A stretch of 62,306 bases of DNA. Origin: Fimbriimonas sp. (GTDB lineage: Bacteria > Armatimonadota > Fimbriimonadia > Fimbriimonadales > Fimbriimonadaceae). The stretch lies in NCBI GenBank assembly GCA_029866005.1, contig JARXAE010000038.1, forward strand, positions 1 through 62,306, written 5' to 3'. This document shows positions 21,749 to 29,571 of the stretch, in pieces. Positions within the stretch are counted from its first letter, which is position 1. Each line of letters begins with the position of its first letter. The position numbers were made by a program, and so were the translations under genes. The notes below the pieces were generated by a model. The model was given only the letters and a program-made list of their open reading frames with translations. It made no database searches and had not been told where the DNA came from.

Positions 21749-23683
21749 TTAGCGAACTTGCGTTCCTTCGGGTGCCTCGCGATCTGGCTGCAGAAGAATG
21801 GCTCCACCGTTCTCGTCCGTCGCCGCGAGGAGCATCCCTTGGCTCTCAGTTCCGCGCAGCTTAGCTGGCTTGAGGTTGTAGACAACTACGACCTGTCGTC
21901 CGATCAAATCCTCTGGCGAGTAGTTCGCTCGAATTCCCGCAACGATCTGCCGCTTCTCCTCGCCGATGTGCACCTGGAGCTTCAGCAACTTGTCGCTTCC
22001 CTCGAGAGGCTCGGCCTCAAAGACCCGACCAACCCGCAACTGAACCTTTGCAAAGTCATCAATCGTAATGATTCCGGTCGTCTCTTCTGCTGGCTTCTTT
22101 GTTTCTTCCATCTTGGGTTTCTCAGGTTTTTCGGGCTTTTCGGGTGCGGGGACCTTCGAGAGGTCGATACGGGGGAAAATTGGCTGTGGCTCGTTCAAAA
22201 CGGTACCTGCGGGCAACGAATCCGGCGATCCAATCAGCGACCAGTCGGCGGAAGGTGCAACCCCAAGCTGACGAGCAACCTCGTCACACACTGTTGGCAT
22301 AAACGGCCGCAGCATCCCCTCGGCTGCTCGAACGCAGAGGATCATTGATCTCAGAACGGAAGCCAAAGCCGGATCGCCCGCCTTTGCTAACGCCCACGGG
22401 GCCCGGGTGTCGACATACTTGTTGACAAATCGAATGACATCAATTCCGGCGTTCGCCGCACGTTCCAATCGGAACCCAGTCATCGCCTCCTCGTAAGCGG
22501 TCTTGCATCGAGTGATCGCTTCTAAAACCTCCGCCTCCACTGGCGCATCGGGAACGATTCCGTCCACAAACTTGTGCGCCATTGCCAACGATCTGTTTAA
22601 GGCATTGCCTAAATCGTTAGCCAAATCGCTATTGTATCGCTTATGGAAGTCCTCATAAGTGAACGTAGAATCGTTCTCGTATCCCATCGTCGCCGTAATG
22701 TAGTAGCGAACAACATCCACTGCCACGGCAGGCGAGCAACCGGCCAAAGCCGCCGTCTCTGCCGCCAACTCTAACGGTCGAACAACATTCCCCTTCGACT
22801 TCGATATCTTTTCTGTGCCGAGCAAAATCCAGGCGTGAGCAATCACGTGCTTAGGCAGCGGCAAATCCGCGCCCATCAGCATTGCTGGCCAAAGCGTCGC
22901 GTGGAACCGGGTCAGAATGTCCTTTCCGAGCCACTGCGCCTCCGCCGGCCACTTTTCCTCCCAGCCCGGATTCGGCCACCCAGTCGCCGTGATGTAATTG
23001 ATCAGAGCATCAAACCAAACGTAGATGACCTGCGACTCATCCCCCGGAACCGGAATCCCCCAGCCGTTGTTCTTGCGCGAAACGCACTGGTCCATCAGCC
23101 CAGATTTGATGAACGAAACAACCTCGTTCTTACGCGTTTCCGGAATGATGAAAGAAGGATTCGCCTCGATATGCGCCAGCAACCGATCCCCAAATGCCGA
23201 GAGCTTGAAGAAGTAGTTTTCCTCGCTCACCCACCGGACTTCATTGCCGTCTGGGCTCTTACCGTCAACTAAGTCAGCTTCCTTGAAGTAAGTCTCGGTC
23301 GAAACGTCATACCAACCCTCATACTTGGCGGTGTAGATGTAGCCGTTTTCCTGAAGCTTGGCGAACAGTGCCTGCGAAGCCGCACGATGCTCGGGAAGGG
23401 AAGTGCGAACAAACTTGTCGAACTTCATGCCCATGCCGTCAAAAATCTCGATAAATCGTTGCGCAATCTCGGCCGTAAACTCATGCGGATCCCGGCCCAA
23501 AGCCTCCGCAACTTCCTTGATCTTGAGCCCATTCTCGTCCGTCCCCGCGACCGAAAAAACATCTTGGCCCCGCATCCGCAGGTACCGAGCCGTCACATCG
23601 CCCGACAGCGTCGTCAAGATATTCCCGATATGCGGTGTGCTATTCACATAGGGAATAGCCGTCACGATGGTGGTCTTCGGCAT
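21749..23683 (-). CDS. metG: Methionine-tRNA ligase with C-terminal tRNA-binding domain
   Basis: 644 residues. Class I aminoacyl-tRNA synthetase that charges tRNAMet. The HIGH-type motif is TPHIGNILT (about 17), the KMSKS loop is EKISKSKGN (about 300), and an anticodon helical bundle follows. After a Lys/Pro/Glu-rich linker (about 525-550) there is a Trbp111/EMAP-like OB fold (IDDFAKVQLRVGRV to the end). The connective peptide reads GWYDVSTETYF and DGKSPDGNE where B. subtilis-type enzymes have a CxxC...CxxC zinc knuckle: all four Cys are gone. It diverges from ileS with a palindromic promoter. A -10-like TAAACT lies 8 nt before the ATG. Confidence 0.96.
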   Translation of the reverse strand: MPKTTIVTAIPYVNSTPHIGNILTTLSGDVTARYLRMRGQDVFSVAGTDENGLKIKEVAEALGRDPHEFTAEIAQRFIEIFDGMGMKFDKFVRTSLPEHRAASQALFAKLQENGYIYTAKYEGWYDVSTETYFKEADLVDGKSPDGNEVRWVSEENYFFKLSAFGDRLLAHIEANPSFIIPETRKNEVVSFIKSGLMDQCVSRKNNGWGIPVPGDESQVIYVWFDALINYITATGWPNPGWEEKWPAEAQWLGKDILTRFHATLWPAMLMGADLPLPKHVIAHAWILLGTEKISKSKGNVVRPLELAAETAALAGCSPAVAVDVVRYYITATMGYENDSTFTYEDFHKRYNSDLANDLGNALNRSLAMAHKFVDGIVPDAPVEAEVLEAITRCKTAYEEAMTGFRLERAANAGIDVIRFVNKYVDTRAPWALAKAGDPALASVLRSMILCVRAAEGMLRPFMPTVCDEVARQLGVAPSADWSLIGSPDSLPAGTVLNEPQPIFPRIDLSKVPAPEKPEKPEKPKMEETKKPAEETTGIITIDDFAKVQLRVGRVFEAEPLEGSDKLLKLQVHIGEEKRQIVAGIRANYSPEDLIGRQVVVVYNLKPAKLRGTESQGMLLAATDENGGAILLQPDREAPEGTQVR

Positions 23684-23736: not shown

Positions 23737-26505
23737 ATGGACTTCAAATCGACTCTCCATCTCCCGGACGCTGAAGCGACAATCCCCATGAAGGCGAACC
23801 TGCCGACCTTGGAGCCGTCGATTCAGCAGATTTGGGATTCAGAGGCGATTTATCACAAACTCCAAGAAGCCCGGAAGGACTGCCCGAGCTACGTCCTCCA
23901 TGATGGCCCGCCTTACACGAACTCGCCGATCCACATCGGAACTGCGATGAACAAAATCCTGAAGGATTTTGTTCTTAAGAGTCGCCAGATGATGGGCTTC
24001 AGAACCCCTTACGTTCCGGGATTCGATAACCACGGTCTGCCTATCGAGCAAGCCGTGATGAAGAAATTCGTGGAAAAGAAGATCACGCCTACGATCCCTG
24101 AACTTCGCCAAGCCTGCCGCGACCACGCTTCCGAATACCTCGCCATCCAACGCGACCAGTTCAAAAGGCTTGGCATCTTCGGCCTTTGGGAAAAACCTTA
24201 CACGACGATGGACTTCCGGTTCGAAGCCGAGATCGTGCGAGTGTTCCGTCGCCTTGTTGAGAAAGGCTATGTCTATAAGGGTCTCCGACCAACCCTCTGG
24301 AGCCCCACCAGTCGAACCGCCCTTGCAGACACCGAGATCGAGTACCACGACCACGTGAGTAAGGCGATCTATGTCAGATTCCCCCTCAAGAGCGATCCAA
24401 ACCAAGAGCTAGCCGGACTAGACAACGTCTACACCGTGATCTGGACCACTACGCCGTGGACGATCCCCGCAAACCTTGCCTGCGCCTTCCATCCCGAGTT
24501 CAACTACGACGTCGTCAAGGTCGGCAACGATCACTACATCATCCTCCAAGACCTCGTCGCCAAAGTCGCCGAGAAAGTCGGCTGGGCCGAGTACACCACC
24601 GTCAAAACTCTCGAAGGGATCAACTTCGACAAGATTGAGTTCAAACACCCGATTTTTGACCGATCCAGCCTCGCCGTCATGGCAGACTACGTCACGACAG
24701 AGGACGGAACCGGCGTCGTCCACACTGCCCCCAGTCACGGACGTGATGACTTCTTCACCGGGCAAAAGTACAATCTGGGAGTCCCGAACACGGTTGACGA
24801 GAGAGGAGTCCTTACGCACGAAGCCGGTGAGTTCGAAGGTGTCTTCTACAAGAACTGCGACACTGTCGTAGTCGAACGACTCCAAGAAGTCGGAGCCCTG
24901 CTCAGTGTCAGCGATTACCAACACAGTTACCCCTACGCCGAGCGCGATGGCCAGCCCGTGATCTTCCGCGCCACCGAGCAATGGTTCCTTAGCCTTGAAC
25001 ACGAGGGCCTACGGGGACGAATGCTTGACAGCATCCAAGACGTGAATTGGGTCCCGAGTCAGGGCCAAAACCGCATTGAGGCGATGATCCGAAACCGCCC
25101 CGACTGGTGCATCTCTCGACAACGCCCTTGGGGAGTCGGAATCCCGGTCTTCTATGGTCGCAAGTCTCGAGTTCCGGTGCTTGATCCGGTTGCCATCGAT
25201 GCGGTTGCGAACCTAGTAGAAGCCGAAGGCTCCGACGCCTGGTTCATCAAAGAAGCCGCCGACATTCTTCCCGCCGGTTATGTCCACCCCGAAACTGGCG
25301 AAACCGAGTTCGACAAGGAAACCGACGTCCTCGACGTCTGGTTCGACTCCGGTTCCACCTCCCTCGCAGTCCTTGAAGGCAACGTCTATCCCGAGTGGAA
25401 AGAGAACTGGCCCGCGGACATCTACCTCGAAGGCTCTGACCAACACCGAGGCTGGTTTAACACATCTCTCATCCTCGGCCAAGCCACTCGCGACGGCGCG
25501 CCTTACAATACCGTCCTCACCCACGGTTTTGTTACCGATGGCGAGGGACGCAAAATGTCCAAGCGCCTCGGCAACGTCGTAGACCCGGTCAAAGCCTGTG
25601 CCGACTACGGTGCCGATGTCGTCCGCTATTGGGTCGCTGGAACCGATTACGCAAACGACGTCCCCTGCAGCGATCCGATTCTGAAGCAGTTCGGCGAGAG
25701 CTACCGAAACATCCGCAACGCACTCCGCTTCCTGATCGGAAACCTGAAAGGTCACACCGCGGACTCGGTCGAAACGCTGCTTCCCATTGACCAATGGTTC
25801 ATCGAGCAAGCCGACCTCCTCGTCACCGATTGCATCGACGCCTATGAGCGGTTTGATTTCGGAACCGTGATGTCGAGCGTCCACAACTTCTGTCGCCAAC
25901 AGCTCTCCGCCTTCTACGCCGATGCAGTCAAGGACCGGATGTACTGCGACGCTGAAGACTCCGCTGAACGAAGATCCGGCCAACAAGCTTGCTATGAAGT
26001 GGCGGAAAAGCTGATCAAGCTCATCGCTCCGGTCTTGGTCCACACCGCCGAAGAGAGTTGGCTCAAGATGCATGAAACCCTCGGCGTGAAGCCAACTTCA
26101 GTCTTCTTCGAGACCTTCGATGCCGTTAGCATTGACGAGATTGAAGGCAGCGAACTCCAACAACGGTTCGCCGCGGTCATCGCAGCCAAGCAGGTCGTCA
26201 ACAGCTCGTTCGAGCCGTACAAGGGAACCGACGGGATCAAGAACTCACAAGACGTCGTCGCGAAACTCGCCGTTGACGCCACCGAGAAACAACTTCTCGA
26301 AACCTTTACTGCCGACGAACTAGCGAACTTCTTCAAAGTCAGCTGGGTTGAACTGGCTGAAGGGGAGCCTGCTGTGACGTTTGTGAAATCGCCCTACAAC
26401 GAGTGCATCCGCTCCCGAGTCCGGCGGCCCGACGTTGCCGAAGTCGAAGTGGACGGAGAAAAGGTTTTCCTGAGTGCCCGCGACCGAAAGGTGCTTGATC
26501 TTTGA
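23737..26505 (+). CDS. ileS: Isoleucine-tRNA ligase
   Basis: 922 residues, typical bacterial IleRS size. Charges tRNAIle and carries a CP1 editing domain. Motifs are PIHIGTAMNK (HIGH site, about 67), the editing-domain TTPWTIPANLA, DVWFDSGS, and GRKMSKRLGN (KMSKS). The C-terminus aligns with the Cys4 zinc-finger tail of bacterial IleRS but reads ECIRS and LSARD where CERCW and LCARC are expected, so three of four zinc ligands are missing. The TGA overlaps the TTG start of lspA. It is divergently transcribed from metG. Confidence 0.97.
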   Translation: MDFKSTLHLPDAEATIPMKANLPTLEPSIQQIWDSEAIYHKLQEARKDCPSYVLHDGPPYTNSPIHIGTAMNKILKDFVLKSRQMMGFRTPYVPGFDNHGLPIEQAVMKKFVEKKITPTIPELRQACRDHASEYLAIQRDQFKRLGIFGLWEKPYTTMDFRFEAEIVRVFRRLVEKGYVYKGLRPTLWSPTSRTALADTEIEYHDHVSKAIYVRFPLKSDPNQELAGLDNVYTVIWTTTPWTIPANLACAFHPEFNYDVVKVGNDHYIILQDLVAKVAEKVGWAEYTTVKTLEGINFDKIEFKHPIFDRSSLAVMADYVTTEDGTGVVHTAPSHGRDDFFTGQKYNLGVPNTVDERGVLTHEAGEFEGVFYKNCDTVVVERLQEVGALLSVSDYQHSYPYAERDGQPVIFRATEQWFLSLEHEGLRGRMLDSIQDVNWVPSQGQNRIEAMIRNRPDWCISRQRPWGVGIPVFYGRKSRVPVLDPVAIDAVANLVEAEGSDAWFIKEAADILPAGYVHPETGETEFDKETDVLDVWFDSGSTSLAVLEGNVYPEWKENWPADIYLEGSDQHRGWFNTSLILGQATRDGAPYNTVLTHGFVTDGEGRKMSKRLGNVVDPVKACADYGADVVRYWVAGTDYANDVPCSDPILKQFGESYRNIRNALRFLIGNLKGHTADSVETLLPIDQWFIEQADLLVTDCIDAYERFDFGTVMSSVHNFCRQQLSAFYADAVKDRMYCDAEDSAERRSGQQACYEVAEKLIKLIAPVLVHTAEESWLKMHETLGVKPTSVFFETFDAVSIDEIEGSELQQRFAAVIAAKQVVNSSFEPYKGTDGIKNSQDVVAKLAVDATEKQLLETFTADELANFFKVSWVELAEGEPAVTFVKSPYNECIRSRVRRPDVAEVEVDGEKVFLSARDRKVLDL

Positions 26506-28461: not shown

Positions 28462-29571
28462 ATGAACTCCCCTAACGGCGTCCGCTACGAACTCCTCGGA
28501 ACCTGCCCCCACACCAAGGCACGCCTTGGGCGACTCCATACACCACACGGCACGGTCGAAACCCCTTTCTTCATGCCCGTCGGAACCCAGGGAACCGTCA
28601 AAACCGTCGGTAGCGAAGACATCGAAGCCCTCGGCTTTGAGCAGATCCTGTCCAACACCTATCACCTTTCCCTTCGCCCGGGTTCAGATCTGATCGAGAA
28701 GCTGAACGGCCTCCACAACTTTATGTCGTGGAAGGGCGCTATCCTGACCGACAGCGGCGGCTACCAGGTCATGTCGCTCAGCAACACCAACGAGGTCACC
28801 GACGAAGGTGTCACCTTCAAATCCCACCTCGATGGCAGCAAGCACTTTCTCACCCCCGAGCGATCGATCCAAATACAGGCTCAATTAGGCGTCGATATCA
28901 GCATGATGCTCGACCAATGCCCTCCTTACCCCTGCTCCCGCGATGAGGCCCACCAAGCCATGAAGCGCACTCACGAATGGGCGCATCGCAACCTCGCCGC
29001 GCGTAAAGAAGGTCAAGCCATCTTCGGAATCGTACAAGGCGGGGTCCACTTCGACATGCGCGAAGAAAGCGCGGCATACATCTCCGACCTCCCCTTCGAC
29101 GGAATCGCCATTGGTGGCGTTTGCGTCGGCGAGCCTACCGAGATGCAATACCCCGTCGTTGAGCACACCGCGCCGTTGCTGCCCAACGACAAAGCTCGCT
29201 ATCTGATGGGCGTCGGTCACCCGAAAGACATCATCCACGCCGTCGCTAGCGGAGTCGATATGTTCGATTGCGTCTTGCCCACTCGCATGGCGCGCCACCA
29301 CTGCCTTTACACGCTAAACGGCCGAATCAACGCCATGAACAAACAGTGGGCTGAGCATGATGGCCTCCACGACGAAGGCTCCTCATTCGCGGCAACCAAC
29401 CGCTACTCCGCCGCCTACCTCCGCCATCTCTTCAAAGCCAACGAACCTCTCGGCGCAAGAATTGCTACCCTGCACAATCTCGCGTTCTACGCGCGCCTCA
29501 TGCAAGAGATACGCGACGCGATTGCACAAGGGACTTGGCCCGAACTCGTTGCTCGCTACGCGCAAGCGTAG
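28462..29571 (+). CDS. tgt: tRNA-guanine transglycosylase (queuine/preQ1)
   Basis: 369 residues. Exchanges guanine-34 of GUN-anticodon tRNAs for preQ1 in queuosine synthesis. TPFFMPVGTQGTVK, LTDSGGYQVMSL (active-site Asp), FGIVQGGV, and DCVLPTRMARH (nucleophile Asp) are intact. The zinc site is not: where E. coli has ECDCYTC before YSRAYLHHL, this protein has GSSFAAT before YSAAYLRHL, so all three Cys ligands are replaced while the following His is kept. It is not accompanied by other queuosine genes here. Confidence 0.95.
   Translation: MNSPNGVRYELLGTCPHTKARLGRLHTPHGTVETPFFMPVGTQGTVKTVGSEDIEALGFEQILSNTYHLSLRPGSDLIEKLNGLHNFMSWKGAILTDSGGYQVMSLSNTNEVTDEGVTFKSHLDGSKHFLTPERSIQIQAQLGVDISMMLDQCPPYPCSRDEAHQAMKRTHEWAHRNLAARKEGQAIFGIVQGGVHFDMREESAAYISDLPFDGIAIGGVCVGEPTEMQYPVVEHTAPLLPNDKARYLMGVGHPKDIIHAVASGVDMFDCVLPTRMARHHCLYTLNGRINAMNKQWAEHDGLHDEGSSFAATNRYSAAYLRHLFKANEPLGARIATLHNLAFYARLMQEIRDAIAQGTWPELVARYAQA

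What the first reader, a model, noticed from the sequence alone, without database searches (positions are those of the whole stretch)
29371..29430. Tgt lacks all three cysteines of its structural zinc site
The E. coli enzyme has ECDCYTC just before YSRAYLHHL. Here the same place reads GSSFAAT before YSAAYLRHL, keeping only the final His. Catalytic Asp residues and substrate loops are intact. Loss of these ligands is destructive in characterised Tgt enzymes, so compensation is expected.
Basis: partly seen in the sequence, partly recalled or inferred. Interest (0 to 1): 0.65.

Follow-up and report, generated by a model that had tools for sequence, protein, structure and literature searches.

The report
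Zinc-free queuosine enzyme in Fimbriimonadaceae
The bacterial enzyme that starts queuosine modification of tRNA, normally described as needing a structural zinc atom, has lost three of its four zinc ligands throughout one bacterial family and (independently) throughout the Rhizobiales sampled here, yet it looks intact and in use, so the zinc seems dispensable in evolution.

Summary
The window's only Tgt (28462-29571, +, 369 aa) reads GSSFAAT where characterised enzymes have xCxCxxC. The three cysteines are Ser307, Phe309 and Thr312; the fourth ligand, His338, is kept. This is not an error or decay. All 51 distinct Tgts from Fimbriimonadaceae and a second family of the order lack the cysteines and share a fixed replacement, S-x-F-P-x-T plus His. 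All 13 Tgts from three other families of the order keep CxCxxC+H. Catalytic and preQ1-pocket residues are invariant, dN/dS is about 0.05, the modelled fold matches Zymomonas Tgt (rmsd 1.5 Å), and QueC, QueA and QueG are present in the genome. The premise that zinc loss must be destructive does not hold in general: 76 of 76 Rhizobiales Tgts surveyed also lack the site, by different replacements, and Tgt works in that order (Bartonella henselae, Sinorhizobium meliloti papers). Best reading: a zinc-independent variant of ordinary bacterial Tgt, with the zinc knot replaced by a packed, hydrogen-bonded core. Unexpectedly, IleRS in the same window has also lost its C-terminal zinc finger, as have nearly all sampled Rhizobiales. 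Activity and metal content remain untested.

The parts
28462..29571 (+). tgt, tRNA-guanine(34) transglycosylase, 369 aa, the only copy in the genome
   Evidence: TIGR00430 448 bits; single PF01702 match in the genome
29377..29397 (+). GSSFAAT: place of the zinc loop; C1, C2, C3 replaced by S307, F309, T312
   Evidence: alignments
29473..29475 (+). His338, the retained fourth zinc ligand (H349 in Z. mobilis)
   Evidence: 51/51 in the zinc-less clade
29404..29430 (+). YSAAYLRHL, helix after the loop; carries the positions of the Z. mobilis dimer-interface aromatics W326/Y330/H333 (Y315, Y319, H322)
   Evidence: role in the dimer is from established knowledge of Z. mobilis Tgt
28750..28752 (+). 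Asp97, catalytic Asp (Z. mobilis D102)
   Evidence: 51/51 Asp in the clade
29266..29268 (+). Asp269, catalytic nucleophile (Z. mobilis D280)
   Evidence: 51/51 Asp in the clade
26404..26502 (+). C-terminal end of IleRS (gene 23737-26505), place of its zinc finger: CIRS...LSARD, three of four Cys replaced; a parallel loss in the same window

Best explanation
This is a working bacterial Tgt that no longer uses the structural zinc. Shown: the zinc loop kept its length and place in almost all members, and three ligands were replaced by one fixed set, Ser307-x-Phe309-Pro-x-Thr312, with His338 retained, in the ancestor of two sister families of Fimbriimonadales. The barrel, the active site, the preQ1 pocket and the dimer helix are unchanged, and the queuosine pathway genes checked are present. 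Inferred: Phe309 fills the hole left by the metal, while Ser307, Thr312 and His338 hold the loop by hydrogen bonds, so that the C-terminal subdomain still supports tRNA binding and dimerisation. The enzyme should then exchange G34 for preQ1 in GUN tRNAs as usual, but without zinc.
For: S307 50/51, F309 50/51, P310 45/51, T312 40/51 (otherwise mostly L), H338 51/51 in the clade. One clade (SH-aLRT 98) in a tree built without the ligand columns; families f2-f4 of the order are CCCH, so the site was lost. Catalytic and pocket residues D97, D151, C153, Q192, G219, V222, E224, D269 are 51/51. dN/dS 0.05 overall and 0.03 in the subdomain against a near relative. AlphaFold model pLDDT 91.7, with the loop blocks at 91-96; 1.5 Å rmsd over 364 residues to Z. 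mobilis Tgt 1pud. QueA 60/61, QueC in all f1/f5 and QueG in all near-complete genomes. Independent precedent: 76/76 Rhizobiales Tgts lack the site; B. henselae Tgt partially complements an E. coli queDF tgt mutant (PMC11570991); S. meliloti tgt mutants have clear phenotypes (PMC3568095).
Against: No activity, metal or queuosine measurement exists for this clade. AlphaFold models no metals, and a confident loop may partly be copied from zinc-bearing homologues. A paper of the field states that Tgt requires zinc for activity (PMC9508795). That the B. henselae and S. meliloti enzymes themselves lack the ligands is inferred from their order and genus; those two sequences were not read here. Some clade-specific His/Cys columns (15, 158, 253, 279, 280) leave a moved metal site formally possible.
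Confidence: 0.85

Rival explanations
1. The enzyme is degenerating: zinc loss is the first sign of a dying queuosine function.
For: Three ligands that are nearly universal elsewhere are missing.
Against: Fixed replacement motif in 51 distinct sequences, invariant active site, dN/dS about 0.05, and QueA/QueC/QueG retained family-wide.
Confidence: 0.03
2. The protein still binds zinc or another metal, with Ser/Thr/His and water at the old place or with new ligands elsewhere (for example H253, H279/H280).
For: His338 is invariant although the Cys are gone; several Cys/His columns are specific to the clade.
Against: The second ligand is Phe in 50/51, which cannot bind zinc; no new conserved Cys/His appears within the region 288-351. 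The new His columns lie in barrel loops, not at the subdomain.
Confidence: 0.08
3. The loss is part of a general low-zinc economy of these bacteria (a cause of the change, compatible with the best explanation of how the enzyme works).
For: IleRS has no CxxC of its C-terminal zinc finger left in 29 of 31 Fimbriimonadaceae, is partly reduced in family f5, and has lost it in 26 of 27 readable Rhizobiales; MetRS in the window has no CxxC either.
Against: Ribosomal protein L36 keeps its CCCH zinc site in all 29 relatives extracted, own genome included, and the IleRS loss came later than the Tgt loss and more than once. Only four proteins were looked at, and metal-free MetRS is a known variant.
Confidence: 0.15
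4. The Fimbriimonadales and Rhizobiales zinc-less Tgts share one origin through gene transfer.
For: Both orders lack the site.
Against: Different replacements (S,F,T,H against S,C,A and A/N/I/V) and separate supported clades, with CCCH sisters in the window's order.
Confidence: 0.02

Closest known systems
Zymomonas mobilis / E. coli bacterial Tgt (TIGR00430; PDB 1pud, 10FA)
   Same: Fold, catalytic Asp pair, preQ1 pocket with Cys and Val that mark preQ1 use, dimer-interface helix
   Different: No CxCxxC; three of four zinc ligands replaced
Tgt of Hyphomicrobiales/Rhizobiales (Bartonella, Nitratireductor and 76 surveyed)
   Same: Also lacks the zinc site; function known in B. henselae (partial complementation) and S. 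meliloti (mutant phenotypes)
   Different: Other solution: S-x-C-P-x-A and the His mostly replaced by A/N/I/V; separate clade
Tgt of other families in the same order (f2, f3, f4)
   Same: Nearest relatives that have the site; same last steps of the pathway
   Different: Intact CxCxxC...H in 13 of 13

Membership tests
bacterial tRNA-guanine(34) transglycosylase (Tgt, TIGR00430) | Scores above the family's curated cut-off | tested here: met
   448.3 bits against 306.75
bacterial tRNA-guanine(34) transglycosylase (Tgt, TIGR00430) | Catalytic Asp102/Asp280 and pocket Asp156, Cys158, Gln203, Val233, Glu235 (Z. mobilis numbers) | tested here: met
   All present in the window and 51/51 in the clade
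bacterial tRNA-guanine(34) transglycosylase (Tgt, TIGR00430) | Barrel fold of Z. mobilis Tgt | tested here: met
   AlphaFold model; Z 51.7, rmsd 1.5 over 364 residues to 1pud
zinc-containing Tgt (the characterised kind) | Structural zinc site CxCxxC...H | tested here: not met
   S307, F309, T312; only H338 kept. Hence filed as a zinc-free variant, not as the zinc enzyme
bacterial tRNA-guanine(34) transglycosylase (Tgt, TIGR00430) | Exchanges G34 for preQ1 in GUN tRNAs | not testable with these tools
   Only inferred from residues and pathway genes
bacterial tRNA-guanine(34) transglycosylase (Tgt, TIGR00430) | Genome holds enzymes that make and mature preQ1 | tested here: met
   QueC, QueA, QueG found, QueH absent; QueD, QueE, QueF, FolE not searched

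The most novel reading that the evidence does not exclude
Structural zinc has been lost in parallel from the same two tRNA-handling enzymes, Tgt and IleRS, in two unrelated bacterial groups (Fimbriimonadaceae and Rhizobiales). IleRS converged on the same replacement (CxxS...[ST]xxD), which would point to a shared selective cause, such as zinc economy, acting on particular zinc sites while others (L36) are kept.
Probability: 0.2. Interest if true: 0.65.

Novelty: new variant of a known kind. Interest (0 to 1): 0.45.

Why it matters
Tgt is described as a zinc enzyme, and its zinc site is counted among the hallmarks of the family (PMC6165067, PMC9508795). Two independent, lineage-wide losses with different replacement cores, one of them in an order where Tgt function is known, say that the metal is a replaceable structural prop. 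The natural variants give a direct way to test how a zinc knot is replaced step by step. A parallel loss in IleRS in the same two groups, if it holds up, would be a lead on zinc economy in tRNA enzymes.

Tried and rejected
Sequencing error or pseudogene: rejected by relatives and dN/dS. Second, zinc-bearing Tgt elsewhere in the genome: none. Missing Q pathway: rejected. QueH as the last enzyme: absent in 61/61, QueG instead. A new Cys/His set in the loop region: none. A solved zinc-less Tgt in the PDB: none recognised; the best matches of a Rhizobiales Tgt are Z. mobilis, and 10FA-10FC are E. coli Tgt. Papers describing Tgt without zinc: none found in the held library; subscription papers, including Chong 1995 and the 2025 review by Reuter and Ficner, are not held, so prior notice cannot be excluded. 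Proteome-wide zinc loss: spoken against by L36. Searches centred on locus ids failed and were redone with genome handles.

Full report
Observation. The window carries one tgt gene, 28462-29571 on the + strand, 369 aa, which scores 448 bits with the Tgt equivalog model TIGR00430; it is the only Tgt in the genome. Against Z. mobilis Tgt the zinc loop E-C-H-C-A-V-C aligns with G-S-S-F-A-A-T, residues 306-312, 29377-29397. The three Cys are thus Ser307, Phe309 and Thr312; the fourth ligand is His338 (29473-29475).

Organism and extent. The closest named genomes are uncultured Armatimonadetes and Fimbriimonas (92-72% identity), so the window is from Fimbriimonadaceae, Armatimonadota. I collected Tgt from 60 relatives and read the four ligand positions. 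All 51 distinct sequences of the window's family (f1) and of a second family (f5) lack the three Cys; all 13 from families f2, f3 and f4 of the same order have C,C,C,H. Within the zinc-less clade Ser307 is 50/51, Phe309 50/51, Pro310 45/51, Thr312 40/51 and His338 51/51. One member (L134) has also lost three residues of the loop. In a tree built without the ligand columns the zinc-less f1+f5 Tgts form one clade (SH-aLRT 98) inside CCCH relatives, so one loss there suffices (quick search, no bootstrap).

Is it working? The catalytic Asp97 and Asp269 and the pocket residues Asp151, Cys153, Gln192, Gly219, Val222 and Glu224 are 51/51. Cys and Val at these places mark preQ1-using enzymes (PMC3660597). 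Against the nearest relatives dN/dS is about 0.05 for the gene and 0.03 for the zinc subdomain, with dS near 1, so the values are rough; against more distant ones the subdomain varies somewhat more than the rest. The AlphaFold model has pLDDT 91.7, with 96 and 91 for residues 291-300 and 301-310, and superposes on Z. mobilis Tgt with 1.5 Å over 364 residues. The genome holds QueC, QueA and QueG; QueA is in 60 of 61 relatives, QueG in all near-complete ones, QueC in all f1/f5; QueH is absent. Degeneration is therefore very unlikely.

Is zinc needed? The field says so (PMC9508795). But brought up two Bartonella and one Nitratireductor Tgt, and one spirochaete, without the site. A survey of 81 Rhizobiales genomes (further sequences) gave 76 Tgts, none with the four ligands; the usual set is S,C,A and A/N/I/V for the His. 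In Spirochaetota 77 of 81 Tgts have the site and four are altered. Rhizobiales and Fimbriimonadales Tgts are separate supported clades with different replacements. Function is documented in that order: B. henselae Tgt partially complements an E. coli queDF tgt mutant (PMC11570991), and S. meliloti tgt mutants lose HeLa-cell and symbiotic phenotypes (PMC3568095). I did not read those two sequences; that they lack the ligands is inferred from 76/76 in the order and 2/2 in the genus Bartonella. A Rhizobiales zinc-less Tgt also models confidently (pLDDT 92.6).

Mechanism. Shown: fixed replacement motif, unchanged active site and fold, pathway genes present. Inferred: Phe309 fills the metal's place; Ser307, Thr312 and His338 hold the loop by hydrogen bonds; the subdomain continues to serve tRNA binding and the dimer. 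A metal held elsewhere is not excluded: several His/Cys columns are specific to the clade, but none lies in the loop.

A second loss nearby. IleRS (23737-26505) in the same window has no CxxC at all. Its C-terminal finger, CxxC...CxxC in f2 (11/11) and f3 (1/1), is C-x-x-S...[S/T]-x-x-D in most Fimbriimonadaceae: 29 of 31 have no CxxC left. In f5 it is intact in 3, half lost in 2 and lost in 2, which shows stepwise loss in place. In Rhizobiales 26 of 27 readable IleRS have the same CxxS...[ST]xxD, one is intact. The IleRS tree separates the two groups by intact f2/f3 sequences and needs at least four changes of state. L36 keeps its zinc site in all 29 relatives extracted, so the loss is not general. 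With two lineages the coupling of Tgt and IleRS losses is only suggestive; whether IleRS lost zinc before the Rhizobiales arose was not tested.

Verdict. A zinc-free variant of a known enzyme, fixed across two families, convergent with Rhizobiales. Not degenerate, and not a new kind of system. I found no paper that reports it, but key subscription papers are not held.

Noticed in passing
23737-26505 (+), C-terminus 26404-26502: IleRS has lost its C-terminal zinc finger (CIRS...LSARD); no CxxC left in 29/31 Fimbriimonadaceae, partly lost in family f5, lost in 26/27 readable Rhizobiales, while f2/f3 are intact.
   Followed up: partly
21749-23683 (-): MetRS in the window has no CxxC zinc knuckle; metal-free MetRS is a known variant, so this may be ordinary.
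   Followed up: no
L134 (genome G033): The Fimbriimonadaceae Tgt of this genome also lacks three residues of the former zinc loop (PFSE---FPGLDRYS), yet its IleRS keeps both CxxC pairs.
   Followed up: no
L135 (genome G046, family f5): A second, distant Tgt-like protein of 366 aa beside the normal Tgt; weak match to PHROG 887 'queuine tRNA-ribosyltransferase' (24.5 bits), perhaps of phage origin.
   Followed up: partly
L262, L305 (genomes G168, G179, Spirochaetota): Two very divergent Tgts with SYSH and TTTH at the ligand places, on a long branch apart from the other spirochaete Tgts; possibly a separate subfamily.
   Followed up: no
L217 and L371 (genome G084, Rhizobiales): The one Rhizobiales genome with an intact IleRS zinc finger (L371) still has a zinc-less Tgt (SCAI), so the two losses are not strictly tied.
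   Followed up: no
Tgt residues 253, 279, 280 (29218-29220, 29296-29301): His residues typical of the zinc-less clade (H253 47/51 against none in the reference set; position 280 His/Cys 86% against 1%) in barrel loops.
   Followed up: no
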